Shown piece by piece: positions 7,786 to 64,000 of a DNA stretch of 64,000 bases. This stretch comes from Anseranas semipalmata (taxonomy: Eukaryota; Chordata; Aves; Anseriformes; Anseranatidae). Below the pieces are notes generated by a model. It was given only the letters and a program-made list of their open reading frames with translations, did not search any database and had not been told where the DNA came from. The position numbers and the translations under genes were made by a program. Each line of letters opens with the position of its first letter. The stretch's first letter is position 1. Location of the stretch: NCBI GenBank assembly GCA_013399115.1, contig VXAA01005226.1:118509-182508 (forward strand). The letters run 5' to 3'.

Positions 7786-8649
7786 TCAATGGGCTATTCC
7801 TGCTATGAAGCACAACATATCCAAGCAGCACATTGTTGTTAAAGCTAAAAAAAATTCATTGTATGGGAGAAGTTTATGGTCTTTATCCAGGTGGAAGTTT
7901 TGGATGTAATATACTCTGAACACATGATGAGGCATAAAGCACATTAATGTTACCAAGATGAAGAAGAAACTCTTTGCCTGAGCCCTGAATTCCACGTGGG
8001 AGTTGATGTCAGGCCAGTATTTCACAGCCAGTCTACAGATCACAGATAACTGGATTACAGTGAGCACAGCACAAACTACCACCGAAATTCCAACCAAGCA
8101 GTAGTTTACTACCACCATGGGTGTCTTTTGCATCTCCTGCTGGAACTGAAAGCACTGGGAGGAAGGGTATGTTTTAGAGGTGCCATAGTAGGAGAGAAAA
8201 ACAGGTGCAATCACCAGTGCTCCCAGCAACCAGACAGCAGTCACCCAAGTTGTAGTGTAGCACTTCTTAAACTCAAGTCGGAAGAGACGTATTACGATGA
8301 TAGCAATGTAAAACGCAAAGGTGGTGTACATGTGGAGGTAGATGATGCCACTTGCTAGCCTGCAGGTGAATGTCCCAAATTTCCATTCTTGTAAAATGTA
8401 ATAGCTGAGGCGGAAGGGGATGCTGAGTAGCAGAAAGGTATGCAGTACCAGCAGGTTGATGATGATAATGGTCATCACAGACTGTGATTTCCTTCGAAAC
8501 AACTGATGGGACATCCCGATGACCCCGAGGGTGCCACCAGCCAGGTCAATGCTGTACAGGATTATGAGAACAGAGTGGAACCTCTCTGAGGTGTCCAGCA
8601 GTGTCTCATTGGAGGAATGGTTATTCTGGGTTAAGCTGCTATTAGGCAT
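7786..8649 (-). CDS. GPR141-like class A G-protein-coupled receptor
   Basis: A 287-residue seven-helix receptor. The start chosen is the ATG at 8649-8647 (MPNSSL); the frame extends four codons upstream only to a GTG. A strong acceptor (pyrimidine run then CTTTCAG) ends at 8677, so this is one coding exon behind a 5' UTR intron. The N-terminus has three N-glycosylation sequons (N3, N10, N14). Cys96 and Cys166 are the usual TM3-ECL2 disulphide pair. GPR141-type features are His70 where class A receptors usually have the TM2 Asp, IRL at 120-122 in place of DRY, CFMPHH at the TM6 bend, and DMLCF in place of NPxxY. It parallels the second receptor helix by helix but is clearly diverged. The protein stops right after TM7, with no helix 8 or cytoplasmic tail, whereas GPR141 has about 20 more residues. 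It is probably a tandem paralogue; the ligand is unknown. Confidence 0.9.
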   Translation of the reverse strand: MPNSSLTQNNHSSNETLLDTSERFHSVLIILYSIDLAGGTLGVIGMSHQLFRRKSQSVMTIIIINLLVLHTFLLLSIPFRLSYYILQEWKFGTFTCRLASGIIYLHMYTTFAFYIAIIVIRLFRLEFKKCYTTTWVTAVWLLGALVIAPVFLSYYGTSKTYPSSQCFQFQQEMQKTPMVVVNYCLVGISVVVCAVLTVIQLSVICRLAVKYWPDINSHVEFRAQAKSFFFILVTLMCFMPHHVFRVYYIQNFHLDKDHKLLPYNEFFLALTTMCCLDMLCFIAGIAH

Positions 8650-8676
8650 CCTCTTAAGCACCTCTTTTGAAGGTTA
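8650..8676 (-). other. 5' UTR part of the GPR141-like coding exon and its acceptor
   Basis: The minus-strand sequence reads a pyrimidine-rich run ending TTTCAG at 8677, then about 27 bases before the ATG. An in-frame TAA just after the acceptor blocks any coding extension. The upstream 5' UTR exon or exons lie at higher coordinates and were not located with certainty. The exon at 11599-11692 is one candidate. Confidence 0.65.
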
Positions 8677-22386: not shown

Positions 22387-23590
22387 TCACATTGCCTCCC
22401 TTGTTGCCAGCTGGAAGTTGGCTTGGCCACACACTCTCTTCCTGGATGCTGACCTGTGTTGTTCCACCTGACCAGCCTGGTCTGCCTGTGCTCCTTTGCC
22501 CTGCAGGTGAAAACAAAGGTCAGCTTTGGAGCGTGGGATAGCTAGTGGTTGTGCACTGGCCATGGATTCTGTTGGCAAAAGGCTACATGTCTGTAAGGTC
22601 TGTGTGGGTGGAGGTTTCAGAGGTTGTGGATGAATTTCTTCTAATGGAGACTGGGGTGCAGGATCTGTTACAGCCTCAGTACCAGTTGGATGCTCTGGGG
22701 CTGCATGGGCTCTTGGGATGTGTGATGAAGCAGAGGGAGTCAGCACAAAGAGCAGGTCCTTCTCAGTCATTAGGCAGCTGATGATATGAGATGGAAGAGA
22801 GGTTGAGGTGAGCCCAGACCTGGGATCTGCTCCAAACAGAGCTGAATGTGGTGAACAGTTTATTCCTGAGTGGTGAGCTGAATTCTTAGCAAACTGCACA
22901 AAGTGAATTCCCATAGACCAGTCCCATGAATTATTATCTGCCATCCACTCCATGAGCATTTCCTCAATATTACCATTTGAATGCTCTACCAGCTTTTGAC
23001 TTTGAGAGTGTCCTGCTTTTCCATGAACCAAGCTGAGCTGAGTCCACAAATATTTCAGTTCTTGCATGACTTCAGAAATTAATTCAATTCCATCACGACC
23101 CTCTAATACATCAGGGGCTCCAAAAATGAGAAAGATGTCAAGAAGCTGTAGAGCCAACTCAGCTGCTTTTTTTGACATAAGTGAACAGAGAACACAAAAT
23201 TTGGTGACACAGACCTGGTACACCATTATGCACTTCAAGCTGCCTAGAGACATCGACAGCATATCGATAAAGTCAATTTGCCCCCTTGCTAAGTGCTCCT
23301 TGTTCAGAACAGACTGGCCAGCAAACCGTTCAGCCAAATGGTGCCTTCTTTTTTCCTGGCAGACTGTACAGCAGGATTTGAAGAGCTGAACGGCATCTCT
23401 GGTGATGTTTGCGTAGTTAGACAACAAGTGTTTTATGACACGATCACAGCCACTGTGGCCAGTAGCCATATGTGCTTTTTTGATGATATCATATGTATCC
23501 TCAATGCTCACATAATATGTGTGAGATTCCTCTTTCATCTGCATTCTCTTAATCAGCTTTTCAGTGTCTCCACACTGTAGAATTTCATAT
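22387..23590 (-). CDS. KRBA2/SCAND3-type integrase-derived protein, main exon
   Basis: A long open exon (about 400 codons) after an acceptor CTCATTTCAG at 23591. Counting from the Met at 23544, an HHCC zinc-binding integrase N-domain is intact (H25, H30, C59, C62). An rve-type core follows: D91 in GQIDF, a region with LLDIF, and the VHGK...VEHSNGNIEEML block with E187. The middle catalytic Asp of the usual S-D-N-G motif is replaced: the site reads GRDG, with Arg150 in the aligned position. After ALFGADP the protein turns into a Pro/Ser/Thr-rich tail of about 130 residues. KRBA2-like and SCAND3-like host genes descend from Ty3/gypsy or Ginger-type integrases. This copy cannot be assumed to be catalytically active. 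It may be a domesticated DNA-binding protein or a fossil with a surviving frame. Confidence 0.8.
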
Positions 23591-23707
23591 CTGAAATGAG
23601 GGAAATAGGAAACTGTTCATTAGCAATAAAGCTGTGTCTCTGAAGGGGGAAAAGTAGCGACATATACACTTACAGTTAAAAAAAAAGAAAGAGTGGATCC
23701 TCCATAC
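23591..23707 (-). other. Predicted intron in the integrase-derived gene
   Basis: 117 bp between donor AA|GTATGG and acceptor TTTCAG|A. Removing it joins LLAK to YEILQCGD in frame, which restores the expected spacing before the zinc-binding domain in this family. Read without splicing, the frame runs into stop codons. A TATG direct repeat near both ends means an insertion is an alternative to a true intron. Confidence 0.6.
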
Positions 23708-23880
23708 TTTGCAAGCAGATAGTATTCATGTCTCGACTTTGACCTGGGATTTTGCTTTGCCTTCTTTATTTCAGCAATAATTGCATAATTCTCTGTCCTT
23801 GGGATCATGTACTTGGAGCGTTTCTTATACTTTTTGTAAAGTTCTTTTCTAAATTTAACTTCAAAGTCCTGAGGAATCTT
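23708..23880 (-). CDS. KRBA2/SCAND3-type integrase-derived protein, upstream exon
   Basis: Encodes a basic segment (DFEVKFRKELYKKYKKR, then MIPRTENYAIIAEIKKAK and HEYYLLAK) that resembles the N-terminal region preceding the zinc-binding integrase domain in KRBA2-like proteins. It ends in phase 2 at 23708 and joins the main exon. Either the ATG at 23808-23806 is the start, or the exon begins at the acceptor ATTCCTCAG near 23877 and earlier exons exist; an in-frame TAA lies just upstream. No KRAB or SCAN domain was found. Confidence 0.6.
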
Positions 23881-23989
23881 CAGAACTTATTACTTAGTAA
23901 GTAGAGAAATCTGATCCAACTACCTCTTTTTATGTACAACTGCTTTTGCACCAATTTCTGATGTATGCTACAGTCATATTGTGAAACCA

Positions 23990-27674: not shown

Positions 27675-28768
27675 GTCATAGAGTCAGAGAATATCTGAGT
27701 TGGAAGGGACCCACCAGGATCATCGAGTCCAACTCCTGGCTCCACACAGGACCACCCCAAAATCAAACCATACGTCTGAGAGCGTTGTCCAACTGCTTCC
27801 TGAGCTGTGACAGGCTTGGTGCCGTGACCACTTCCCTGGGGAGCCTGTCCCCATGCCCAAGCACCCTCTCAGAGAACCTTTTCCGAACTTCCAGCCTGAA
27901 CCTTCCCTGCCGCAGCTTGATGCCGTTCCCTGGGGTCCTATTGCTGGTCACCAGAGAGCAGAGACCAGCGCCTGCCCCTCCGCTTCCCTCGTGAGCCAGC
28001 TGTAGGCCGCCATGAGCTCTCCTTTCAGCCTCCTCTTCTCCAGGCTGAACAAACCGAGTGACTTCAGCCGCTCCTCATATGTCTCGCCCTCTAGAGCCTT
28101 CACCATCTTCGTAGCCCACCTTTGCACACTCTACTCTTCTCTAACAGTTTTATGCCCTTCTTACCTGGTGGCACCCAAACCTGCACAAGGTACTTGAGGT
28201 GAGGTTGCACCAGCGTGGCATAGGGTGGGACGATCGCTTCCCTTGACCGGCTAGCAATGGTGTGCTTGGTGCACTCCAGGACACGGTTGTCCCTTTTGGC
28301 TGCTGGGGCACACTGTTGGCTCACAGTCAACTTGCTGTTGACCTCTAGAACCTTTCCCTTTCCATGGGGCTGCCCTCAACCTCTCATTCCGCAGTCTGTG
28401 TGTATAGACAGGGCTGCCCTGTCCCAGGTGCGTGTGCTTGGTGCACTCCAGGACACGGTTGTCCCTTTTGGCTGCTGGGGCACACTGTTGGCTCACAGTC
28501 AACTTGCTGTTGACCTCTAGAACCTTTCCCTTTCCATGGGGCTGCCCTCAACCTCTCATTCCGCAGTCTGTGTGTATAGACAGGGCTGCCCTGTCCCAGG
28601 TGCAAAGTCCAGCACTTACTCTTGTTAAATTTCATACAGTTGGTGGCTGCCCAGCTCTCCAGATCGTCAAGATCTCTTTGCAAGGCCTCTCTACCCTTGA
28701 GGGAGTCAACAGCTACTCCTAATTTAGTATCATCTGTAAGCTTATTTAGTATGCATTCAATTATTTAA
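27675..28768 (-). mobile_element. CR1 retrotransposon 3' part (reverse), interrupted
   Basis: Begins with the reverse complement of the CR1 3' end (TCATAGAGTCAGAGAATATC, then GAGTTGGAAGGGACC) and continues through blocks typical of CR1: ACCACTTCCCTGGGGAGCCTG, CTTCTCCAGGCTGAACAA, and CTTGTTAAATTTCATACAGT. It contains an internal tandem duplication (28261-28603). It is broken near 28768 by another CR1 and resumes at 29128. Confidence 0.93.
28261..28603 (-). repeat. 172-bp perfect tandem duplication inside CR1
   Basis: 28261-28431 and 28433-28603 read the same base for base, with a period of 172. The surrounding CR1 is old and diverged, so the duplication is much younger than the element, or is an assembly error. 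Confidence 0.92.
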
Positions 28769-31347: not shown

Positions 31348-32292
31348 CTAGCAGCAGAAGAACCTGCTTCGAAGCACGCCCACCTTTTGCTTGAAGATGC
31401 GGCTTCCGCTCAGCACAAACGACAGCAGATCCAGGCAGCTGAGGGCAGTTAGACTCAAAAAAACCTCATTGTAGCTTTCTAACTGGTCATAATCGTTCAC
31501 ATGCTGTATGTAGTAGGCCCTAAAGAGGTGATAAGGAAGGAAGCATATTATGATGACACAGATGAAAATCAAGTTTTTCACCTGGGCCCAGAACTCTTGG
31601 TGTGACCAGAGGGAGGTGGAGAGTTTTCTTGACACTTTTATCAGAATGAAAATCTGCAGGCCCAAGAGGACGCAAGTAATACAGGCAACAGTCACAATTA
31701 CCAGGTAGTTCAGGATTTTCACACTGTCTTGATGCAGCTCTTTGTGGAACTTAAAGCATGTTTTATTATCGTACTTCCCTGAGCGTCCATACTCAATGCA
31801 GAAGAGTGGCACCACAAAGATGATGACGAAGATCCATACGGCAATGCTTGCGGCAATGGCGTGCAGCTTCCTATAAAACTCTACCTTATCCTTCCATTGA
31901 AAGAAGATCAGCCACCGGATCACCAGCGTGATCACATAGAATAGGAAGGTCAGGTACATGTGTATGTGCACCATGGCACTTACAATTTTGCAGAATGGCA
32001 TCTGGAAGACCCACTCCTTTTTGACATAGTAGTGCAGGCGGAAGGGCACTGTGAGAAGAAGGAGACCGTGCACCACAACCAGGTTAATGATGGCTGTAGT
32101 GGTCACAGACAGAGTGTTCATCTTGACCAGCACAAATGACATTGCAATGGACCCTATCGCACCTCCAGCAAAGGCAACTGAGTAGGTAGTAATGAGGATG
32201 GCACTCATGGTGTTGGTGTGGGCGAAGGCAGAGGAGGAGCCATTGCTGGCCGTATTTTCTTCAATCATGTTCCTGAAATCTTCCTTGTACAT
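31348..32292 (-). CDS. GPR141: G-protein-coupled receptor 141
   Basis: A 314-residue class A orphan receptor in the plasma membrane, close in length to human GPR141 (about 305). Recognised by family-specific stretches: LVKMNTLSVTT, INLVVVHG, VHIHMYLTFLFYV, KDKVEFYRKLHA, SHQEFWAQVKNL and CFLPYHLFRAYY. Sequons are at N17 and N176. Cys101 and Cys179 form the expected disulphide. Family-typical departures from class A are His75 at the usual TM2 Asp position, IRW at 125-127 instead of DRY, and DLLSF at 288-292 instead of NPxxY. The C-tail is short and basic with two terminal Cys, possible palmitoylation sites. The ATG lies three bases after an acceptor (CATTTTTAG), so the coding exon is complete and the 5' UTR is spliced. 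Known mammalian expression is in myeloid cells; nothing here shows that directly. Confidence 0.97.
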   Translation of the reverse strand: MYKEDFRNMIEENTASNGSSSAFAHTNTMSAILITTYSVAFAGGAIGSIAMSFVLVKMNTLSVTTTAIINLVVVHGLLLLTVPFRLHYYVKKEWVFQMPFCKIVSAMVHIHMYLTFLFYVITLVIRWLIFFQWKDKVEFYRKLHAIAASIAVWIFVIIFVVPLFCIEYGRSGKYDNKTCFKFHKELHQDSVKILNYLVIVTVACITCVLLGLQIFILIKVSRKLSTSLWSHQEFWAQVKNLIFICVIIICFLPYHLFRAYYIQHVNDYDQLESYNEVFLSLTALSCLDLLSFVLSGSRIFKQKVGVLRSRFFCC

Positions 32293-32297
32293 ATTCT
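32293..32297 (-). other. GPR141: Splice acceptor of the GPR141 coding exon
   Basis: Minus strand reads TTCTTTCATTTTTAG|AATATG: acceptor AG at 32297-32296, three bases of UTR, then the start codon. The upstream non-coding exon lies at higher coordinates and was not identified. Confidence 0.7.
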
Positions 32298-49700: not shown

Positions 49701-52030
49701 TGAGCAGTCAATGGCACTGGTGACCCTTGATGAAGGTGTAGACAAGGTGGGTGTCAGGCATGGAACCTCGCTGCGCCACCCACTGTTTGCATCACAAGGG
49801 CTGGCAATCCTGCTGTGGCATCTCGTGGAGGCTACAGGCCTACAGATATGTCCATGCTTCTGCCATGGTAAAACATCACTCAGGTAGGCAGTGAAAAATA
49901 CAGCAGTAAGACAACAGCTGTTGCTCATCTGCTTTATTATGGAAGTAATTTGTCCTGGTGGCTTGACCATGCCCATCAATAAATCACACCAGAAACCTGA
50001 AAGACTTCAACTACCTCCTTAATCTTTACAAGGGAAAACTGCCTGATTCATACTATCATTTCCAGAGAAAAACAATAGAACTGTTTCTTTCTAACTACAG
50101 AATGACAATGAGAGAGAAAAAAACAAATAGGTAGCTAATATAGCATTTAACTTTCATGGCTTTTCTCTTCTTTTATCTCTATTGTCCAGTTCTTTTCCCC
50201 TGTGTGCAAATCGAGTATTACAACATTGTAGAGTGGAGGAGTAAGGATGGATTAAAGCATAAGGATGGAGCAGAATGGAACAGGAGAAGTCTGATGTATT
50301 GTGAGGAACTGTCTGATGTATTGTAAAGGAGAAAATACTAATAACATTAAAGCACTCCTGGACACCAAAGGCTTGAGCCAGCAGGTTTTCAGCCAACTGC
50401 TGTTCCTACTCTGTGTGGTACAACATCTGTATGAGTACTACAGTTGCATCTAATAAAAATGGGAGTTTCAAACATATGTCCTCAGTGGGTTGCTGCGAGC
50501 AGATCGTAGGGCATCTCCTCATTGCCTCTGAGTGTCATCTTAAGCAGTGAAGAGGAGAATAGTGGATAAGCCTTTGAGAGTCTCAGCTAATAAACAGAAA
50601 TTGCCTGTTGTGACTTTTGTCCTTCCAGGAATGTTATGCAAGTGAGTGAACAATACAGTTTGGCCTAGACTGGGGAAGGCTGCAAGGAGACTGAAGAGTT
50701 TAAGTACCAAGATGTGGCCCCAACTTACAAGATGTCCTCAGTAACTAACATGACTTTGCTGCATGTTCATAGGCCTCACCACAAGTTTTATCATTGTAAA
50801 TATGGTAGATGCTTGTTGTTTGCATTAAGTTTTTACTATTTTCTCCAATGTTGTTTTTTTTTTTTCTAGAAGTCAGAGATTATAGATACAGTGATAACTG
50901 TTGAAGTCTCTAGATCATGTGCAAACTCTTTGAACTCTGAACAGAGTACTGGCCTTCTTCAGAAAAGCCAATGAATTGCCTTCTTAGAGGAAAATGTGAA
51001 TAATTTCTGCTACAAAAGGGCACGGTTGATTTCAGCTGATTTTTAATAGCCAGAAGAGGCATGGATCTGTTTTACAAATATTTCTTTGTATCTTCCATGT
51101 TAAAGAAAAGACAGAAGAGCAGAAAAGGCAGCGGACAGGAGCTGCTGCTGAAGTCTTGAGTTATCCACCTTGATGATGAATCCTCTGGAGATTATTTTTC
51201 CTGTGGTGAGGGAGGATATGTCTTTTGCTGCAATGCCTGAAGAACAATGTTGGTTGCTTTTGTTGTGCAATTCTGTGCAGAGAATAAAATAGAAAGTATG
51301 CTCTGCTTCTGCTATTGTGGTGGCTACGTTTGGCAATAGGCTTGCCTATGAGCAGATAGGACCAGTTCTGAGGCAACAACAAACTATCTTCTGATGTTTG
51401 GGCTTTCCAGTGCAGCCTATCAGTGAAACATAGTCATATTCTTTGGTCAGTGAGGAGAGGAAAGCAACTTAGACACAAGAAAGGCAGAGTACATACTAGA
51501 AGCACTGAAAATACTCAGCGCAAAAGAGGTGTCATGAAATTTTACATGTCAGCTCCTTTGCTGTGAAAGTGTGACTTACTTTTCTAAAGCAAACTGGAAA
51601 TGCAAGAAACTAAAAAGCTTCCTGTGATGGAATCACCTTTTGTTAGTTTCTTCTCCTGGAACAAGCACAGAAGTCTTTGACTGCTGGGAGGGTTGACCCC
51701 TCTCAGGAGCCAGTCTTAAGCAATAGGCCATGCCTCTGTGAACTGTCCGAGGTGAAAAGCTAATCCAAGGAAGGCATAAAAATATCCTTATTTTTATCCC
51801 AGTTCAGTTTCTGGTTGTCATGGTTGCCAAACCTAGCTTAAGAAAAAAATAATATAGGAAAATCAAGTTTTTCTGACCACATGGAAGGGAAAACAATGTA
51901 CTTTAAGCACTGTGTGTAGTAAAAACAGGGTGCAGGCATCCACTATCTGAGCATTCATGGCAGACATCTTCTCTGAGCAAACAGACTTGGAAATAACAGA
52001 GGATTTTTTTTAATTACCATTGAATAAACA
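49701..52030. other. Upstream region of the plus-strand coiled-coil gene
   Basis: No known element recognised. It should contain the promoter and any 5' UTR exon of the gene starting at 52031; a possible acceptor (GGAAATAACAG) lies near 52001. Sequence at 49701-49990 is GC-richer than its surroundings and may be an unrecognised repeat. Confidence 0.4.
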
Positions 52031-52209
52031 ATGAAGTTGTACTTTGAAAACTCATCAGGGATGCAGAGCAGTGATGAAATCAGATGTAGGGTTTCTTACC
52101 CATACACAAACAAAAAATCTCTGGATAAACAAGATGTAAATGACTATTCAGCTGCGATAACAGGACAGACATCTGTGCCACAGAACAGTCAGAAAGCTTG
52201 CCTTCTTAA
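52031..52209 (+). CDS. Unrecognised coiled-coil gene, coding exon 1
   Basis: The ATG at 52031 has A at -3 and an in-frame TAA two codons upstream, so it is a natural start. It encodes 59 codons plus two bases. The peptide is polar and looks coding (MKLYFENSSGMQSSDEIR..., NKKSLDKQDVNDYSAAITGQ..., SQKACLL). It ends at donor AA|GTGAGG in phase 2, matching the next exon; read through the donor, the frame stops at once. I do not recognise the protein. Short likenesses to the N-terminus of the meiotic protein IHO1 (NKKS, NDYS) are too weak to use. Confidence 0.55.
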
Positions 52210-53270
52210 GTGAGGGCTTCTGCATCTGGAGGCCACAAGATTTCACCTTCCTCTGGAGGAAGAGAGAACTGTCTTGTGGGCTATTGCAAGCAGTAGCCCA
52301 GTACTTTCACAGGGTGAAGTACGTTGTCTGTAAAGAGACAGTGGTGTCCCAGAGAAAGACGGAAGCCATAACATGTAAAGGAGCACAAAGCAGAAAACCA
52401 GAAATCAGAAGTAAAGACATGAATTCAGGTATATGACACCACTGAGACTGCAAAATTAGGCACTCAGAAGTCAGGAAAGGGAGAAAATTGAGTAGAACAA
52501 AGCTCACTCTCTCTGTCTCTTTTTTTTTTTTTTTTGAGCCACATTCCTCCACTTGTGAGACAGCACTTTTGATTTGCTAAATGCTATGAGGATAGAGAAG
52601 TGGGGAGGGCTGGCACTACAGCCACAACAAGCTGCTGGAGTTAACCAGATCTGTATGGGACGCACAGCCTGAAGACCATCTCTCCCTTATTTGCCTCTGT
52701 CACATTGTTTTCGTGACATTTCTGGAAGATCTGATGAATGCAAAGTTCAGGCTGATACTTTTTATTGAGCCACTTTAAGTTATGCACCACACTGAACATT
52801 CAACCTGAACATATTTTGCTGTAGGTATGTAGCTAAAATTGAAATCCTTACAGACCTTGATCGGGGGCTGGCATTCAGTGTGAGAGCCCCATAACACTGG
52901 CTGCGCTTCGCACATTGCTGAGAGACAATCGCTGCCTGACAGAGCTCACAGATGGAGCTGGCAGTTAAGATAAACCCTCATCAAGGAAATAGCTCTTGCT
53001 TTATTAAATTGAGCCAAGCCAACTTCCTCTTAATTACCTAGGCCCCTTGTCTCACCTCCTGCACCACCATTGCTTCGGTCAGAGACCCTCTGTACTACCC
53101 TGCCTATGGGAAAAGAGTCTAAACTCTTTGCTTACACTGCCTCTGCAGTCAAGACATGGCTTCTTCCAGGAAGGCTGAAGCAGTTCCTGTCTTCAGGTCT
53201 TCTCAGAACTGGAGGCAAAGCTGACAGTATTTAATCTTACACAGCTATTATTTTTCTCTCCCTATCCTTT

Positions 53271-53325
53271 TGCATGCATGCATTCATGCACACATGCATG
53301 TGCACACATGCACACACAAACACAG
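53271..53325. repeat. Alternating purine-pyrimidine tract (GCAT/CA repeats)
   Basis: TGCATGCATGCATTCATGCA followed by CACATGCATGTGCACACATG and CACACA. About 50 bases of nearly strict alternation, a sequence type able to form Z-DNA. Confidence 0.8.
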
Positions 53326-54443
53326 GTATGTCTTGGTTTAGACAGACTTGCTTCATAATCCATAGCTGAACATAGTTTAATACAATATTTATAGGTCTGA
53401 ACTAAAAATAAATACTGACTGCTAACACATCACACACCTACGCAACTCAGACTGCATGCTGATTATCATAATAGCCAGCTTTCCAGTTCCCATTTTGCAG
53501 CCAGGGCAGTGGACTTCCAGAGAAGCCTTAATGCAGTACACCACCCTATCCCTAGAGGCTGACAGGGAGAACATCTCTAAAATGGAAAGAAGCACAAAAG
53601 CAGACTATGTGCTAGGTCTAAAATAACAACAGCAAAATCATTCTTCTGTTTAAAATGAAGCTGAGGAATTCACCTGGGAACTAGTGGAAATAATGCCAGC
53701 TCCAGCTGGTCAGGCATGGACTGCAGCAATAATTGCATTCAGGTTATTGAATCCCACACATTAGCACATAGCATTGCATCTTACTTTAGTATCTGTAGTT
53801 CCTCAGAGACTCTCTCTGAAAAATGACAGCCTAGCTGGGCTGCTCACCACAGACCCCTGCAACAGTAGGAAGATGTGAACCAGTACCTTACCATATGAAC
53901 CACTCCAACCACAGGTGCATCACAGCTTTTATCCATCACACAGCTTTTGTTGAAAGAGCTGAAAGTTTTGACATTGCAGTCTTCTACTATAGAAGCATGC
54001 GGTTTAATCTATAAACTCACTGAAGAACCAGTTTACTTTGTTTAGAGTGTCTCTGTGGTTAGTCTAAGTGCACTTGTAGTACAGTTGTAAAATTACTACA
54101 GCGTAAAATCTCACTTGCAGATTAGCAAGAGCACTGAAGACTTTTTTTTTTTTTTTCTGAGAGCCTGCTTGTAACCTATGCCTGTGTTAGAAGAGCTTCA
54201 GCTTCAAAACTGTGTGTCACTTCTAATCACTATCTTCAGCTCTATCTGCATAATCTTGCAGAAAACATCCTGGCTTTCTTGCTGTTCTGTGCTCGGTTAA
54301 TCCTTCTAAGCTTCTGTCACTCAGATGTACTTTTTGGTGGGCCTACTTTGATGCGTACTAGAAATATCAGAACTCATGTGATGTCAAAAGTACTTAATTT
54401 TCAAATTCCACTGAGACTGCCTCAGGGGAGGAGAAAAATTCCC

Positions 54444-54483
54444 TGTTTTTTGTTGTTGTTTGTTTGTTTGTTTGCTTGTTTTT
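54444..54483 (+). repeat. TTG/TTTG microsatellite
   Basis: Simple repeat of TTG and TTTG units in intron 1 of the coiled-coil gene. Confidence 0.85.
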
Positions 54484-55995
54484 AATGTATAGTCCATTTG
54501 TTCATTAAAGCATTTGACTGGTTGTCACTGAAGTTCTGGCACACTGCATTTTCTGGTTTATGACAGTTAGCCAGGGGCAAGAAAACACAGTTTTGGTCTT
54601 TGCTATGTTATCACTGAATATTGATAGATTTTTCAAGGCCCTATCTGCCTCCATTTCCCCTTTTGAGGAAAGAAAGTCCAGGTCACATATTTGTTAACTG
54701 GAGCTTGTAACTGAGTACATTACTGATTTGATTGTCATGATATAAGGCCCAATTTTAAAAGCACATGATTAACTTCAAGCACTCATATTCCCATTCAAGT
54801 CAGTCATTATTCCTTTGCTTAAGTGCTTTGTTGAAGTGGGTCCTGAATATGAAGCAGCCCTGTGCTATAAAATTAATTTCCTGAATGTCTCTCTGCCCCA
54901 GGAGCTTAGCTGTTTTGCTAGCAGAACCAACACAGGGAAATTATATACACCGTGCACAATGAGAATTAATAGTGCTGTGGACGTGACTGGTACCTGAGAG
55001 GATGACTATCAGGAGAAAGGTTTCAAAGTGAAACTGAAAAATAACAAGCCAAAACCAATGAGCTTTATATCTTGTTGGGGATCATGGTCAGGTCAGGTCT
55101 GGTGAGCCACCAAAGGATGCAACCTCTGAGATCAAAATGCCGCACCGCAGAGGGTGGGGGTCAGGAGCTGTCCCATGTGTTATGGCGGTGGGGCTGAGGG
55201 GGCCGTGGGAGGAGCAGTGGCCCCACAACTCTCACAGCCGGCCCCTCAGAGCTGTGCTCATGTGGCAGGAAGCCCAAGCAACCAGTGAGCATGCTGTGGC
55301 TGCTGTAGGGTGAAATGCCTCCTGTCAAGGACGTTGAGGAAATCAACCTATCTGCACCAAGTCTATAGCTGCAAAAGCCATGGCAGGGACCAGACATGTC
55401 TTCGCAGCTATGGACTTCTGGGCAACTAATGCTGTCAGGGCACGGATGGGCCATGCTGGATCCCACTGCATAGCACTGACCTCGTGGGAGGGAGCTCAAG
55501 AGGCACTGAGCAAGGTGCCTCTGGTCACTGCAAGGACCGCAGCCTGAGGGGCTGGTGGCAGGAAGAGCAGGGGAAAGCCACAGAGCTAAAGCTCATCTTC
55601 ACTCTTCTCTTGCCGCAGTGGTTAAGCCAGACGTGCTCTCTCAGTTGGGAGCAAAATCAAGCCTGGAGAAATACCAAGGCAAGATGCTGAATAGTGTCCG
55701 TTAACTAAGAAATTATTATTTTATGCCACCTCACAGTACTTGATGGCCTTAGGGAGCTTGGTGTGGTGGATATAACTGTAACCATGTTTGGAAAAGGGTT
55801 CTTCATCTTTGACCTTCTGAAGGCCGGGAGTGCAGCCCTCTGACCCTAGCTTCTATTTTCTGTGTCAGGTGCTTTGTCATCTCCTTCTTATTTTGCTGTG
55901 TTCTGTTTCCGGCTTGAGTGTAGCATCCACCTTTTGGGGGGAAGGGTAAATAAGCCTTGATGACAGGATGGTGTGCAGGTATAGAAGAGGCTTCT

Positions 55996-56056
55996 GTTTG
56001 TTGTTGTTGTTGTTGTTGTTGTTTTTGTTGTTGTTTGTTTTTGTTTTTGTTTTTTT
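55996..56056 (+). repeat. TTG / TTTTTG microsatellite
   Basis: About nine TTG units followed by TTTTTG units. The Gln-rich and Thr-rich frames on the complement come from this repeat. Confidence 0.9.
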
Positions 56057-57563
56057 GGTGAATTCTTGCCTGCTTTGTCACTCTGCTTGCTTGGTCCACA
56101 GTGATGAATTTTTGTGCAGGGACAATGCAAACATCTCTCAGGGCCCCCTATCCCTCTACTGCTTCCCCTTCACTCCCCGGTGCAAGTATTTACAAGGAAA
56201 TACAGAGAACAAACTTCTGGAAAAAAAAATCTAAATTTGTCTCTCTGCCTCAAAGGCCAAATTGAGACTGAGGGCACAAAAAGCAGTACAGATAGTGTTG
56301 TGTTTAGAGAGAGGAGAGGGTGTAGGATTTTGTCCTCTGTAGAAGGAATTAGCTGAGATTATCCTGCATTTTAGAGATGGTATCTAAGTGCATATTTTTG
56401 TGTGAATCTTCATTAACCTTTGTTCTCATGTGCCCTACCCAGTCAAAAAAAAAAAAAAAAAACACAGAAAAAAAAACAGTGTATGTGAGTTTTCACACTA
56501 GTCAGCTAGAGAACAGACTCGCGGTGCCCAAGCGAAGTACTAGATAGATACATTTGCATTTCCTCTGGCACCCCGCTTGCATCCCCACCTCTTGCATCTC
56601 ACCCTGTAGATAATGAGCAAGCCATGGGATTTTGGTGCTGCACCCACCCAGGTTGTGCGGGCACATTCCTGGGACCACACAGCCACCAGTCCTGCCCATA
56701 GACCCTCATGCGGTCGCAGCATTCAGATGGGCAGCTGTCCCAGATCTGTCCCTCAGTTTGTATCTGACATCCTTGCCATGAAAACCAGAGGAAGAGCTCG
56801 ATGCCTCTGCTATATAAACAGTGGCAGAGTTATCCCTGAGAAATGCCTCCAAAAGCTCCCTATGTACAGACTATTTTGCTCTTGAAAGACTGTGCAGAAT
56901 TTCAGCAAATTTTTTTTGCACTTGGGATGAAGAAAAACAATAAAAATAGTGCCATGGCCTCACCCAGTACTTCCTACCCCTGAGAAGGGGCTCACTGCAC
57001 TGCCACAGCCCTTTCTCTTGCAGCATCCCTCTGGGCATGGGCATGCAGCCCTCTGCCTGTGGGATCCTGCCAGACAAAGCCCTGGATGGGGGCTGCTCTT
57101 TCTGGCTGAGTCCCTCATATCCTGTATGATGGCCTCAAACCTATTTGTGCCCAAATGCCCTGTCTAAAAAGGGAAATTGAAATAAATTCAGCAGTTGTGG
57201 TACTAAAATTAAAATTATCCTTAATTATCCTGATCATGGCTTACATAATAAAAAAAGATCCAACAGGTTTTGTGTTTGCCTTTTGCAGTTTCATAACAGT
57301 CATTGCTATGAAATATATTTTATTGCGTTGTTAGAGCTTGGTATGAGGATTTATTTTTCTACAAGCTTGTCTCAAAATCTGAAAAAAAACAAGGTATTAA
57401 ATGTATAAGAGACAACCCACTGTGAAGTCTGTCAGACATGAAGAATTTGGGAGAGGAAATTATATCGTCCACCTGAGTATCTCGTTCCAGCTCTGTAGGA
57501 GATGAGACATGACACAGCGTTTAGCGTGAAACAACAGATTTTTCTGTACAAATGTTTTTGTAG

Positions 57564-57695
57564 GAGCATACTGTTTTCAGATGTGACCTTATCTACAGAG
57601 AGACTAAAAAGTGCGAAGACAGATCTCAGCAAGATGGTTTCGAAATTTCATGCAGAAAACAAACAGCCCCTCAGTGAAAACAGACGTTTCAAGAG
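57564..57695 (+). CDS. Unrecognised coiled-coil gene, coding exon 2
   Basis: 132 bp between acceptor AATGTTTTTGTAG and donor AAGAG|GTAAAT, entering and leaving in phase 2. With exon 1 it reads K-SILFSDVTLSTERLKSA, then KTDLSKMVSKFHAENK and QPLSENRRFK, a helical, Lys-rich segment. A second acceptor (TGTTTTCAG, 16 bases on) is present but is out of phase with exon 1. Confidence 0.62.
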
Positions 57696-59088
57696 GTAAA
57701 TGCTGTTTAAACAGATGTGTTCATTACTGTGTCTTCTAGAATAAGTGGAAAGCAAACAACTTTTAGAGTATTTAGCATAATAAGATTACGAGGTGGACAT
57801 TTTCTGGCATTATGTAGGCCTGAGCAGAAACGCACTTACTTCCCAGCCCACTAAGAAATCAGGAAAACACGGTTTTTTTTTTCTGAGGTTTTGTTCACTT
57901 CTTGTTAGGCTAAAATAAATGTGAGATAAGGTTGTTCCCTNCCAGGAAAACACAGGGTTTTTTTCTGAGGTTTTGTTTACTTCTTTTTCTTGTTAGGCTA
58001 AAATAAATGTGAGATAAGGTTGTTCCCTATGTATTTTGATGCACTTACTAACGGGTCAAGTCAGACAATTGAAAAGTGCTGAAAAGATAATTGTGAAAAA
58101 CTGTTTTGGGCAGTTCATCAAAACATTTCATCAGTCAAAAATGGGATTAAGTTGGTGTTACATAAAAATGTTTAATTTTGTTATATAACAACATCAACAA
58201 AAAAAAACTTACATGAGGGGAGGAAAGACAGCAAAAGGAATAATATGGAGTTTGAATTTAGGTCTTAATGTTCATACTCCTGCCTTGGCCATTTTCATGT
58301 AACCAGAATGGTCACCCAACCTGTGATCCTTCACCTGACACTGTAATTCTGTAGTTTTCAGACATCACCTGTGCCTCCAAGGACTGAGATGAGACAGAAT
58401 GATGTTGTGGGCTCCACACCTGCAAAGGTCAAGAAAGAACTCGAGTGGCAGGTGGAGGAGGTAGGGCAGGTTGGAGGGGGCTCCTAATGTCTCTGTGGTC
58501 AAGGACATGCAGTGTTGTAGTTCCTGCAGCTGATTCACGGTGAGGCTGTGGGCAAGTCACTTTTACTCCCTTGGTCTCACTGCAGTTGGCAGAACTTTTC
58601 CAGGTGTTTCAAAATGGATTTCACCCTCTGTTTCATTGCTTCTGGGCAGAGAGGGGGGAGGGAGCATGCACACAATAAAACACCAAAATGCTTACTAACA
58701 GCATCACAATAAAACATAACTTGTGATGTCTGGGGATATTCTACTTCAGCTAATTGCAAAGAAGCAAGTGCTCTAAAAATAATAAATGAATAACTAAATA
58801 AGTAAAGGTTTTATTTATGTACTTTGCAAATGTAGCTAACTTCCTTACAACTAAAGGCAACCTGAAAATATGACCAAAATATATTCTAAAATACTTGAAG
58901 ACTTACCTTGAAAACAGACTTCATCTTTCCAGTGTCATTAAATGACACTTATCGTTATCTTAATATTTCAGGCATCTTTTGAAAATGAAGTTATGTCCTT
59001 GATCGAAAGCATAACTAAAATTGCAGTTCCTGCAAAGACATATCTTCAGATATTTTTACATTTTTATTCCATTCTATCTCATAACTAG
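57696..59088 (+). other. Intron 2 of the coiled-coil gene
   Basis: 1.4 kb. Holds the 83-bp duplication around the N at 57941. A candidate exon after TATTTCAG at 58970 was examined but lacks a proper donor. Confidence 0.5.
57861..58026 (+). repeat. 83-bp tandem duplication around an unresolved base
   Basis: AGGAAAACAC...GGTTGTTCCCT at 57861-57940 recurs from 57944 to about 58029 with small differences in T-run length and a few substitutions. The single N at 57941 lies exactly at the junction, which suggests an assembly joint rather than a biological repeat. Confidence 0.85.
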
Positions 59089-59128
59089 GCCTCACAGGGA
59101 AACTTTCTGTCATCTTGAACAGAAACAT
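59089..59128 (+). CDS. Unrecognised coiled-coil gene, coding exon 3
   Basis: 40 bp, acceptor CTCATAACTAG, donor CAT|GTAAGT (a near-perfect donor). It enters in phase 2, completing the Arg codon begun in exon 2, encodes PHRETFCHLEQKH and leaves in phase 0. Only this frame is free of stops. Confidence 0.6.
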
Positions 59129-59232
59129 GTAAGTCTGAAGAATCAAGAACCCTTGTATGAAGAGAATGGAGAAAAATACCTACTACCCACTGCATTGTTT
59201 CTTTTTCATACATGTTTTATTTTAATTTTCAG

Positions 59233-59307
59233 ATTTCTGAATTCCATGAGTATAAACTTCTTAGACATCAACAGGTTCCATGTTTGGAGGACATAAGTCA
59301 TTTGAAG
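59233..59307 (+). CDS. Unrecognised coiled-coil gene, coding exon 4
   Basis: 75 bp, 25 codons, phase 0 at both ends. Acceptor TTTTAATTTTCAG, donor AAG|GTAATT. Encodes ISEFHEYKLLRHQQ and VPCLEDISHLK. The other two frames contain stops. The intron before it is only 104 bp. Confidence 0.65.
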
Positions 59308-60027
59308 GTAATTGGTCAAATAACAACATATCCTGTTATTAATGATTTGTTAAAATCTGTCGTATGCACACTTTATATTTTCACTTGATGCACAGAAATG
59401 TTCAAACCAAGACATCTTTGTTTCCCAAGGACTGGTTAACTTACTCAAGAGCATCTTTTCTGAGGAAGAAAGCAGATGAAAGATACCCTGGTTAGTGATT
59501 AAGCCAGAAGTAACCTGTGACATGCAAGGTTCTTAACCAGGAATGGTGTTTGGTACATGAGATATTTTCCACACGGAAGGAAAAATCCAGTTCCTCTTCT
59601 AAAGTCTTTGCAGTTTAGACACGTGCAAGAGAATACTTGAGGCCAGAGTTTCTGGTATTGGTAGAAACAATCAAGAGGCCTCTTTGTTTTCCATTTGGCT
59701 GGCTATTCCATTGGTTCCTACATATAACTGCAGTAAGGAATCAGTTGTGGGCTGAACGCATGAATACACACACATGCACGCTTCCTCCATCTTCCTCTGA
59801 CTGTAAAACATCCACAAATAACTGGCACAGAAACGATTCGATTAATCATTTTCTAAGAGAAATAAAACCAAATGGCATAGTTAACGTTAAGAATGCCTAC
59901 AGATAGTTATTGAGCCATGCAAAGCTTACAGCGTGACTTGTATTTGGTTTCCCATCTTGCCAAACTTCTCCCTCCCTCTGCCTCATCCTGCTCAACCTCA
60001 CCCACTCCTAACCTTTTCCTGTGACAG

Positions 60028-60084
60028 GTATGTTTGCAGAAGCTATTGAAAAGGATGGAAGAAAAGGAAAAGGACATCATAAAG
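60028..60084 (+). CDS. Unrecognised coiled-coil gene, coding exon 5
   Basis: 57 bp, 19 codons, phase 0 at both ends. Acceptor CCTTTTCCTGTGACAG with a long pyrimidine tract, donor AAAG|GTATCA. Encodes a strongly charged helix (VCLQKLLKRMEEKEKDIIK) with Leu/Ile at heptad spacing, typical of a coiled coil. Confidence 0.72.
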
Positions 60085-61907
60085 GTATCAAAAAGCCCTT
60101 ATGTGGAAACAAATAGGCATAAGATATGCAGAAAGAGTGTGAGAGTCTACTGTAAGATTATTAACAATTTGTTATAAGTTTGGACTTCTCCCAGAGCAGT
60201 AAAGGCTGTGTTGGTGTAGCTCTGTGATGCTTAACTCTGCCCAGACACAGGCTCACCAAAGATTTTCCTGGCTGTCACTGGCATGACAAAAATCCCCCAT
60301 CATTACTGTCTCTGATGCTGGGATGGCATAAGACCTGGCTTTTGGATGAGTTGGAGTGACTTCAAGTTTGTGACTTACTGAGTCTTTGTGGTCTTTTCTG
60401 AAGCTGCCCAAAGTGCATGATAAATCATTTGCTCCTGTGGTGTGCTGTTGTCCATGAAGAGATGTATGTGGTCCACCTTTCTTTCACAAATATCAGCATA
60501 GCTGACCAATTTTCACCTGTGTATTTTCCTAATTTCTTATTTTGTGGGCATAATAACGACCCCATGCCAACAAGCTTTCTTCTCCTGTTTTACCACAGGA
60601 GCATAAATCAGCACTTGGGTAGCTAATACCTTGGTTGGTCCCTCCAGTGGAAGGGGCTTCAGATTTCTGAACGTGCAGCTGGGATTTGAATTAGCCTCTC
60701 GGAAACAAAATCCTCTATATTCCATCAATCATCATCAGATTTTGAAAAAGCACAGTGGTAAACAACATAGACTGTTTTGACTTACAAATTCCGCTTCCTA
60801 CCTCCCTGCTTTGACTGGTTGATAGTTTCTTTTTGTTCAGTATGAATAAAGATTATTTTTTCCCAGCAAAACAATTAAGTGCAAGCACTTGTCATAACAA
60901 AGTCTCCAGCAAAGTTTTGAAATAGTGCGTATGTCTGTGATTTCATGCTAAGCTACAGAAAAGCAAATCTTTTACTTAGGAGGGGCCTCCATAAACCAAG
61001 CTGACTTGATTTATGAGTCAGCAGAGCCATGGGATCACAGAATAATTTAGGTGGGAAGGGAACATGGGGGGTGTCTGTCCAACCTCCTGCTCAAAGCTCA
61101 GTCCAATGTGCTCAGGGCTGTATCCAGATGGCTCTGCAAAACCTTCAAGCACAACCTCCAGGGCACCTAGCCAACCACCTTGGAGGCCTCCCCTGAACTC
61201 ACTCCAGTTCATTGATATCCATCATGTATTGGGGGTGATGCAATATCCACATGTGGTCTAAAGAATGTTGAGTAAGGGTAGATAATCTCTCCCTTCGAGC
61301 TACAGGCTGAGCTCCTGTCCATAGAAGCCAGATGCTGCTGGCCTCCATCTCTGCTAGGCACACTGGTTGCTCACACTAAGCTCCCTGCCGACCATCCCCA
61401 GGCCTTTCCTGTGCTGTTCACTTCCTGAGGATTCTTTCATGCTCAGGACATTCTACATCCCACCAGCTACTGAGCCCACCACCCGTATGTTTTCATTAGT
61501 TTCCACTGATAATGAAAAAAAAATCATCCCAAAGCTTGCTCCTGTGTAGATCCTCTGGGGCCTGCTAAGATAGCCACGCTCTCCTGAAGCACTTGTCTCA
61601 GCATGGGCACCAGCTTCAGCTTCCGTCTTCTATCCCATTGCCTATTTTTACCAAACAGATAGGAATTTCATTCCTATGAGATTTCTCTTCACTGCTGATA
61701 TCAGCTACATCTTCTGAGGCTAGAAAGACTGTCAAACACACAGTGTGGTCTCATAATCCTCACTTTTGATAAATGTTTGATGGATAGCAAGTGCTGCTTT
61801 GTAGCTTTTTACTAGAGTCTATTTACCTTGAAAATTTAACCAATGCTACCTTTTTAATATTAATGCTTTTCACCTAACAAGTTATATTTGATTTTGTTGA
61901 TTTTTAG
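60085..61907 (+). other. Intron 5 of the coiled-coil gene, containing a CR1
   Basis: 1.8 kb; the CR1 fragment at 61030-61490 accounts for a quarter of it. The rest is unrecognised. Confidence 0.5.
61030..61490 (-). mobile_element. CR1 fragment (reverse)
   Basis: GGGATCACAGAATAATTTAG, AACCTCCTGCTCAAAGCTCA, CAGGGCTGTATCCAGATGGC, CTCTGCTAGGCACACTGGTT follow the order of a reverse-oriented CR1 3' part. It lies antisense within an intron of the plus-strand gene. The right boundary is approximate. Confidence 0.87.
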
Positions 61908-61967
61908 GAAAAGGGGGAAATATTGCAAGAAAGAGAACTAGTCATACAACAGGACAAAATCTTAGAG
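61908..61967 (+). CDS. Unrecognised coiled-coil gene, coding exon 6
   Basis: 60 bp, 20 codons, phase 0 at both ends. Acceptor TTTTGTTGATTTTTAG, donor GAG|GTACGA. Encodes EKGEILQERELVIQQDKILE, which continues the heptad pattern of exon 5 without a break. Confidence 0.72.
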
Positions 61968-62464
61968 GTACGACATCCTATTACATATCACAGTACATTT
62001 TCTTTCTTTGTTTAGACCAGTACCATTCAGTGATAGCCTTTTACAAAGTTAATTACAAAGATGTCAAGCAGTGAAGCAATAGAGTGAAATACAGTACTGG
62101 TAAGAATGCAGGGAGTTAGTCTGTCAGTATTTTCCGGAACAAAAAAATAATGCAACATTGAGAAATTGTAGTTTAGAAATTTTGCAGACCATAGCCTGCA
62201 AAACAGCAAGTATGCCTTTAAAATGCTTAAGCTTGTATTATAGGGAACTTAAGTCATCAAGAAAGCCACGGTAATCCAAAGTAATACTGGGAGGGCCGAT
62301 TCCCGTAGATTTCTATCAGAGACAATTTGGGAGAGGAGAATATAATATTTTCAAGGACTGCACTGATGCAGATCTCATGCTAATAAGCTCTGACTTGACT
62401 TTTATTACACACCAGACTGATGGACTAATATTAAGAATGTTTGCTTTTCTTTCAAACTTTTAAG

Positions 62465-62526
62465 GACATGCAGATAAAAATAAGCCACTTAGAAGAGCAG
62501 CTCAAGAACTCTGAACTAATTGGGTT
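62465..62526 (+). CDS. Unrecognised coiled-coil gene, coding exon 7
   Basis: 62 bp, phase 0 in, phase 2 out. Acceptor TTTCAAACTTTTAAG, donor GGGTT|GTAAGT (strong). Encodes DMQIKISHLEEQLKNSELIG, more coiled coil. The next exon must supply one base to finish a Leu or Phe codon. Confidence 0.72.
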
Positions 62527-62885
62527 GTAAGTATTAGCAATGCCTTCTATTCTGCGTTTATTATGTTATAGTATCTAGAATATTTCCACATCAGCCACAC
62601 CTGAAATATATGCTATTGATTTTAAGCTAATACAGTTTATGCAGCATCAAACAAGTTCCTCAAATTTATGTAGAATAGATTCTTTTTTTTTTTTTTGTCA
62701 CCTAATCATCCAACCACAGAAATGTAAATGAAATTTAGATGTGGAAAGTCTCATTTTACTCTTAGCAAATTCCAGGAGCAGTTTATCTTTTCCTCAGAAT
62801 ACACAAGTTACAGCACATATCCTGGATGTTTATTTCAATTCTCTTTCTTTATAATCTGCACCAGGTTCATATTATTACTTTGCAG

Positions 62886-62973
62886 AATAAAAAGCAAAAA
62901 CAGCAGCTTGAACAGCAGCAGCAAAGTCTACAGCTACACAGTTATTTTCAGAGCAACAGCTCTGTTTTCTTGA
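62886..62973 (+). CDS. Possible terminal exon of the coiled-coil gene
   Basis: After acceptor ATTATTACTTTGCAG, and in the phase left by exon 7, the frame reads IKSKNSSLNSSSKVYSYTVI and stops (TGA) at 62973, which would give a protein of about 230 residues. In another phase the same stretch encodes NKKQKQQLEQQQQSLQ and stays open to 63254, which looks more like coiled coil but needs a different upstream donor. The true next exon may also lie beyond the window. Confidence 0.22.
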
Positions 62974-64000
62974 CCAGAGTTCAAGTGCCATTAAAACCAT
63001 GTCCTACTAGACTACTGGACTGTAGTTGCCTGTATGTAATGAGTTATATAAAATCTCTGAATTTCAAAACATCACATCCTCACAGCATGATCTACGTACA
63101 GAGACCTGCCCATGTGCATTTAAGCACTGGGCTTCTCACTCTCACTCTTCCCTTTCCTCGCTGTTCTGCAGTTCAGAAATCCTCTAAATTCAGTAAACAC
63201 AAGGGATTAAGTATTCCTTCTAGCAATCACTCCCAAATTAAGCACAAAGTATGAAGTGCTGGCAGTAGGTATGATCCCTGTTTAAAAACTCCCCTTACGG
63301 TCATGTGAAGTGATTCAAGATTCAGTTTTGTGTTCTCTGTGTTCTGAAGAGAAGATCTGTGTAATGACATTAAGTATGCACCACATGAACTGTAACAACA
63401 AAGGCTGAAATATAACATAAAGTTTAAATTAACAAGAATTTTTAGGTGATTTTTCAGCTCCTCTGCTGTTTGCACTGGTAGGGCTACCCCACACCTAATG
63501 GGCAGTAGAGATCCTCTACTTTTAATTGCTGTAGTGTCTCCATCAGGCAAAGTTGGAGGACATCATAGAAGAAAATACCAGACCTTTTTTCCCACCTTAC
63601 TGCCATGGTAGCATATATTTTATGGGAAGAATCCAGAAATACTAATGCTGCTCTCCTGCAATACAATAATCTACAAAGTGTTAGCTCAATGCCAGTGGCA
63701 TCCGCTCTTACCACTGTGTGGGTTCTTCGGGACTGCAGAGTTTTGCCTCTTATCCAAGACAGGATGAACCCGTAAATTCAGTTGTTCCATACAGTAATTC
63801 CTAAGAATTACTACAAAGTAAAGGAGTTCCTAATTCAGGAGCTTATAAATACATGAGAAGGGACAATATCTCACCAAGAGAAGTTTGGGGCTCTCAGTAA
63901 ATGATAGTATAAAATGCAGCAGGAGAATTTATAGCACAGCAGCCTTGAAATGATCCTGAGCACAACTAAGCTTATGGAAATCACTACTTTTTTTTCCAAT
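62974..64000. other. Right edge of window, nothing firmly recognised
   Basis: Probably intron or 3' region of the coiled-coil gene. No further exon with matching phase and a good donor could be identified before the window ends. Confidence 0.4.

What the first reader, a model, noticed from the sequence alone, without database searches (positions are those of the whole stretch)
52031..62526. An unrecognised multi-exon coiled-coil gene next to GPR141
Seven exons found by eye join with compatible phases at all six junctions (2/2, 2/2, 0/0, 0/0, 0/0, 0/0). Each internal exon is flanked by credible splice sites, and most are open only in the correct frame. The last three exons form one continuous charged heptad pattern. 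The start ATG has an upstream in-frame stop. I cannot match the protein to any family, and human has no annotated coding gene that I know of between GPR141 and ELMO1. It could be a gene lost in mammals, a fast-evolving germline protein, or a lineage-specific gene.
Basis: partly seen in the sequence, partly recalled or inferred. Interest (0 to 1): 0.75.

Follow-up and report, generated by a model that had tools for sequence, protein, structure and literature searches.

The report
Bird-only membrane-anchored coiled-coil gene

Summary
Three protein searches returned 30 relatives: 28 from named birds, all labelled uncharacterized, hypothetical or unnamed, and 2 from unnamed contigs.

Best reading: a bird-restricted orphan gene for a tail-anchored coiled-coil protein, probably on the ER or nuclear envelope. 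No named non-bird relative was found at E<=10 among 1478 scored candidates, and no Pfam family.

Constraint looks weak: replacements are no more conservative than random (20 comparisons, p 0.10-0.86), and parrot intron identity (17/27) equals parrot coding identity (52/81). A decaying or near-neutral ORF stays open. The family is annotated but uncharacterised in several birds; 13 of its LOC or locus tags gave no paper. Species, expression and dN/dS could not be tested.

The parts
49760..49883 (+). probable upstream, untranslated exon; donor CAG|gtaggc after 49883, phase 2 if translated. The duck models start their protein here, but the window is frameshifted relative to duck at about 49841
   Evidence: matched by 2 of 30 relatives (duck P0003, P0004): 49760-49840 (21/27 identical) and 49843-49884 (13/14) in different frames; donor score 4.6. 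Start of the exon not determined.
   Evidence: 15 of 30 relatives match; 41 of 45 residues identical to duck. 16 of 30 relatives begin at this Met and 5 more contain it internally.
   Evidence: matched by 24 of 30 relatives; AG/GT borders and phases checked
59233..59307 (+). exon 4: ISEFHEYKLLRHQQVPCLEDISHLK (phase 0/0); absent from the parrot models and from some passerine models (P0018, P0021, P0023, P0024, P0030)
   Evidence: 13 of 30 match; 23/25 identical to goose; alignment
60028..60084 (+). exon 5: VCLQKLLKRMEEKEKDIIK, start of the long coiled coil; a cassette skipped in some relative isoforms (P0003, P0008, P0009, P0021, P0024)
   Evidence: 9 of 30 match; sequences
61908..61967 (+). 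exon 6: EKGEILQERELVIQQDKILE (coiled coil)
   Evidence: 17 of 30 match, some out of frame; 16/20 identical to duck in frame
62465..62526 (+). exon 7: DMQIKISHLEEQLKNSELIG + 2 nt; ends at donor GTT|gtaagt in most relatives, not at the TAA
   Evidence: 26 of 30 match, some out of frame; 22 of 30 continue to W-P/T-H, 1 (P0014) ends at ELIGL. No downstream exon found in 62501-64000.
52031..52209 (+).
   Evidence: 0 of 30 relatives match; one of 7 ATG-to-phase-2-donor ORFs of this kind on the + strand of 63 kb
59089..59128 (+).
   Evidence: 0 of 30 relatives match; relatives with exon 4 are contiguous from 58355-58460 into 59233-59307

Best explanation
This is the 5' and middle part of a real bird gene (first, probably untranslated, exon ending at 49883; coding from Met 57634; further exons to the right of the window) that encodes a tail-anchored membrane protein of about 200-250 residues: a disordered N-terminus of about 40 residues, a long charged coiled-coil helix, a flexible linker, one C-terminal transmembrane helix, and a tail of about 24-29 residues ending in W-P-H or W-T-H. 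Most likely mechanism (inferred): it is inserted after synthesis into the ER or outer nuclear membrane, exposes the coil to the cytosol, pairs through the coil, and works as an adaptor holding a cytosolic or cytoskeletal partner at the membrane; the cassette exon changes coil length between isoforms. Shown here: exon structure, relatives in many birds, coil and transmembrane prediction in relatives. Inferred: topology, organelle, dimerisation, partner, and that it is under useful selection at all.
For: 30 relatives in three searches; exon-by-exon matches with AG/GT borders and consistent phases; window protein 120/140 identical and ungapped to goose from the Met. The window DNA was not chosen for being open, yet its 164 codons carry no stop or frameshift, while about 131 hand-collected codons of aligned, probably non-coding sequence carry 4 disabling differences (Fisher p=0.038). 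AlphaFold2 on 19 relatives (mean pLDDT 65.9): helix 74-156 with block means above 90 over 81-130, helix 172-224 over the hydrophobic stretch, no structure in 1-38. In the 15 relatives examined the best 19-residue stretch has GRAVY 1.40-2.47 and the part after it has net charge -3 to +3 and 24-29 residues (39 in P0010, where the stretch was placed further upstream). In PMC5450235 (passages) mean tail charge is +0.21 for ER, +1.12 for mitochondrial and +6.03 for peroxisomal tail-anchored proteins, so peroxisome is unlikely and ER or mitochondria fit. W[PT]H ends 22 of 30.
Against: Protein-level constraint is weak: replacements are no more conservative than random single-base changes in any of 20 (non-independent) comparisons (p 0.10-0.86); Amazona intron read-through identity (17/27) equals its coding identity (52/81); exons 6 and 7 read out of frame are as similar to duck (17/21, 19/21) as in frame (16/20, 19/20). 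The transmembrane tail is not in the window and was not shown for this species; one relative (P0014) ends before it. Relatives are gene predictions, selected for open frames. No expression, localisation or partner evidence. pTM of the model is 0.26. ER against mitochondria was not resolved.
Confidence: 0.6

Rival explanations
1. A real spliced bird transcript whose open frame is no longer (or never was) an important protein: a near-neutral or decaying orphan gene, or a non-coding RNA to which annotation pipelines assign a frame.
For: Replacements indistinguishable from random changes; intron-flank identity equals coding identity for Amazona; out-of-frame identity of exons 6 and 7 to duck equals in-frame identity; exon 4 missing in the parrot models and some passerine models; the Bambusicola model matches the intron after exon 4 and is only 40/81 identical to the window, less than pigeon (93/121 or 102/140).
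Against: Frames stay open with in-frame gaps in models from six bird orders (orders recalled; models are selected for this); the W-P/T-H end persists in 22 of 30; zero disabling differences in 164 window codons, which were not selected for openness.
Confidence: 0.27
2. A fast-diverged bird orthologue or duplicate of a known vertebrate coiled-coil plus C-terminal membrane family (for example TMCO5-like, SMCO-like or a KASH-type protein; names recalled) that sequence searches no longer recognise.
For: Same broad architecture: cytosolic coil, one C-terminal membrane helix, short tail. Fast evolution hides ancestry.
Against: No Pfam match at its cut-off, nothing in solved structures except designed helices at E 0.11-0.48, no named non-bird protein at E<=10 among 1478 scored candidates. 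The KASH-defining terminal PPPX (PMC8115505, passages) is absent from the 22 tails that end in W[PT]H. No sequences of TMCO5 or SMCO proteins were compared directly.
Confidence: 0.1
3. The reader's own seven-exon protein (start 52031, exon 59089-59128, stop 62530) is the translated product in this species.
For: Phases agree and splice sites are credible.
Against: Exons 1 and 3 match 0 of 30 relatives, and a conserved exon matched by 24 of 30 would be skipped; 22 of 30 continue past the stop to W-P/T-H.
Confidence: 0.02

Closest known systems
Avian 'uncharacterized protein' loci, e.g. LOC106018394 (Anas), LOC110357134 (Columba), LOC121064357 (Cygnus), LOC113964016 (Neopelma), LOC136007529 (Lathamus)
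   Same: Same protein family with matching exon boundaries; goose 120/140, pigeon 102/140, named passerines from 53/107 (Cyanistes) to 88/138 (Corvus) identical over the window's part
   Different: They show the C-terminal part that lies beyond this window. Some isoforms skip exon 5; parrot and some passerine models lack exon 4. Orthology by position was not tested for them.
Tail-anchored (TA) membrane proteins as a class
   Same: Single C-terminal hydrophobic helix followed by about 24-29 residues; near-neutral tail charge as in ER/mitochondrial TA proteins
   Different: A topological class, not a family; insertion not tested
KASH proteins (Nesprins, KASH5, LRMP/JAW1)
   Same: Cytosolic part, C-terminal membrane helix, short tail with a conserved end
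   Different: Tail ends W-P/T-H, not PPPX; no KASH match among the Pfam results

Membership tests
Avian LOC106018394-like family | significant sequence similarity and matching exon boundaries and phases | tested here: met
   for the exons inside the window
Avian LOC106018394-like family | C-terminal transmembrane exon ending in W-P/T-H | tested here: inconclusive
Avian LOC106018394-like family | location between GPR141 and ELMO1 in other birds | not testable with these tools
   no annotated bird genomes in the collections offered
KASH domain proteins | C-terminal PPPX motif needed for SUN binding | tested here: not met
   22 of 30 relatives end in W[PT]H, the other 8 end otherwise and several are partial; motif requirement from PMC8115505 passages
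Tail-anchored proteins | one C-terminal membrane helix with a short tail and no N-terminal signal | tested here: inconclusive
   hydropathy of 15 relatives and helix 172-224 fit; signal peptide and insertion not tested; the helix is not in the window
Any Pfam family | score above the curated cut-off | tested here: not met

The most novel reading that the evidence does not exclude
A gene born in, or uniquely kept by, birds encodes a membrane-anchored coiled-coil adaptor whose conserved W-P/T-H lumenal terminus is a docking peptide working like, but unrelated to, the KASH peptide, with fast evolution reflecting a germline role.
Probability: 0.08. Interest if true: 0.7.

Novelty: new member of a known kind. 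Interest (0 to 1): 0.38.

Why it matters
Genes restricted to birds are little studied (recalled). This one is found in models from six bird orders (orders recalled), has a defined architecture, and sits beside a receptor cluster in an interval that in placentals is flanked by GPR141 and ELMO1. A corrected exon map lets anyone check reads, test selection and ask whether a new gene arose in birds or was lost elsewhere. It also shows how by-eye exon chaining with agreeing phases can be right in the core and wrong in single exons.

Tried and rejected
Fold comparison of the model was not run, because a long lone helix matches almost anything.

Led nowhere: bacterial genome and viral contig collections (286 and 381 pattern matches, no relative); the bacterial promoter/terminator scan, which has no meaning for a bird; paper searches for GPR141+ELMO1+chicken (5 papers), 13 LOC/locus tags (0 papers), tail-anchored bird testis genes (0), avian-specific genes (259 papers, 10 listed, listing only). 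The conservative-replacement test for selection came out negative and is reported against my reading. The splice matrices and the indel ratio and transition bias in the simulation are recalled values; the simulation is illustration only. A dN/dS estimate was impossible: I had only proteins, no DNA, of other birds.

Limits: the profile search scored only the 7990 candidates sharing most words; one search scored all 1478, but with a query from which the coil had been cut, built from 7 of the relatives. Both need shared 5-residue words, so a distant reptile relative could be missed. The species of the window was not identified.
Full report
What was claimed. I rebuilt those exons: phases 2/2, 2/2, 0/0, 0/0, 0/0, 0/0 and an in-frame TAA at 52025 upstream of the ATG.

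Is it real? A search of the joined peptide against about 5.8 billion proteins gave 14 hits at E<=0.1 among 90 candidates, the best at 4.8e-38 to Anser cygnoides. A profile search gave 28 hits at E<=10 among the 7990 candidates scored, and a profile without the coil gave 27 hits at E<=10 among 1478 candidates, all scored. Together these are 30 proteins: 28 from named birds (Anser, Anas, Cygnus, Columba, Corvus, Ficedula, Neopelma, Cyanistes, Coccothraustes, Mimus, Passer, Pitangus, Lathamus, Pezoporus, Amazona, Guaruba, Ciconia, Bambusicola) and 2 from unnamed contigs. Their labels are "uncharacterized", "hypothetical" or "unnamed". No hit from a named organism outside birds appeared.

Correct exon map. 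tblastn of the relatives onto the window at E<=0.01 (29; all 30 counted) gives matches for 57564-57695 (15 of 30), 59233-59307 (13), 60028-60084 (9), 61908-61967 (17) and 62465-62526 (26), adds 58355-58460 (24 of 30), and gives 0 of 30 at 52031-52209 and at 59089-59128. A few exon 6 and 7 matches are out-of-frame isoforms (P0004, P0026, P0027). All six true exons have AG/GT borders and consistent phases. The remaining exons were not found in 62501-64000 and should lie to the right of the window. Two duck models start in an exon corresponding to 49760-49883; the window differs there by a frameshift, so I read that exon as untranslated. 16 of 30 relatives start at the Met equal to window 57634, and 5 more contain it.

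How the error arose. The wrong exon 3 shares entry phase 2 and exit phase 0 with the true one and has better-scoring splice sites under simple recalled matrices. Agreement of phases is therefore weak evidence for any single exon.

What the protein looks like. AlphaFold2 on 19 relatives (first row goose) gives mean pLDDT 65.9 and pTM 0.26: low confidence for residues 1-42, a helix 74-156 with pLDDT block means above 90 over 81-130, a low-confidence linker, a helix 172-224 and a short helix 228-243. Hydrophobicity repeats with period 3.5 over goose exons 5-8 (p=0.0018), more weakly over the window's three exons alone (p=0.074). In 15 relatives the most hydrophobic 19-residue stretch is near the C-terminus (GRAVY 1.40-2.47) and what follows has net charge -3 to +3. 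22 of 30 end in W-P-H or W-T-H. By the values in PMC5450235 (passages) this tail charge argues against peroxisomes and fits ER or mitochondria; the choice of ER or nuclear envelope is inference. There is no Pfam family at cut-off and no solved relative.

Is it under selection? Mixed. For: 164 window codons without stop or frameshift, against 4 disabling differences in about 131 aligned, probably non-coding codons (Fisher p=0.038; a small sample collected by hand), and frames kept in models from several orders. Against: replacements are no more conservative than random in 20 of 20 non-independent comparisons (p 0.10-0.86); Amazona intron flank 17/27 and coding 52/81 are the same; exons 6 and 7 read out of frame are as similar to duck (17/21 and 19/21) as in frame (16/20 and 19/20); parrot and some passerine models lack exon 4; the Bambusicola model is only 40/81 identical and matches the intron after exon 4. 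Neutral simulation with recalled settings gives 84% identity at 0.08 substitutions per site, close to the 86% seen with goose, so identity alone proves nothing. The gene is therefore real as a conserved locus with spliced gene models, but how much its protein matters is open.

Setting. PMC9683012 (passages) names NME8, EPDR1, GPR141, ELMO1, AOAH and ANLN as the three nearest coding genes on either side of the human chromosome 7 Maverick integration, which, by that order, fits the absence of an annotated coding gene between GPR141 and ELMO1 in placentals. PMC12529555 (passages) lists GPR141 and ELMO1 next to each other in its human, frog and axolotl gene lists.

Verdict. A bird-restricted (as far as these searches reach), annotated but uncharacterised orphan gene; most likely a tail-anchored coiled-coil membrane protein; function inferred from architecture only. 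Interest is moderate.

Noticed in passing
window 22387-23616 (-) and 23620-23886 (-): A long stop-to-stop ORF (409 residues) with an 88-residue ORF just upstream; the longer one resembles foamy virus integrase (E 2.5e-5) but has no Pfam match. Probably a transposon- or retroelement-derived integrase of the KRBA2/Ginger kind (name recalled).
   Followed up: partly
window 7786-8673 (-) and 31348-32295 (-): Two single-exon class A receptor ORFs about 23 kb apart, suggesting a tandem receptor pair (second has 7tm_1; first matches CysLT2 receptor at 5.7e-16).
   Followed up: partly
window 28260-28603: A perfect 172-base tandem duplication (2 copies, 100% match), very recent or an assembly duplication.
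   Followed up: no
window 61113-61236: Repeat-like intron sequence that a duck isoform (P0004) uses as a cassette exon; in the window the same stretch has two in-frame stops and a frameshift.
   Followed up: partly
window about 57860-58030: A stretch of roughly 70 bases appears twice close together, with one N between (seen by eye), perhaps an assembly join.
   Followed up: no
Bambusicola thoracicus P0028: This galliform copy is far more diverged from the window than pigeon is (40/81), and its model matches an intron; the gene may be decaying in pheasant-like birds.
   Followed up: partly
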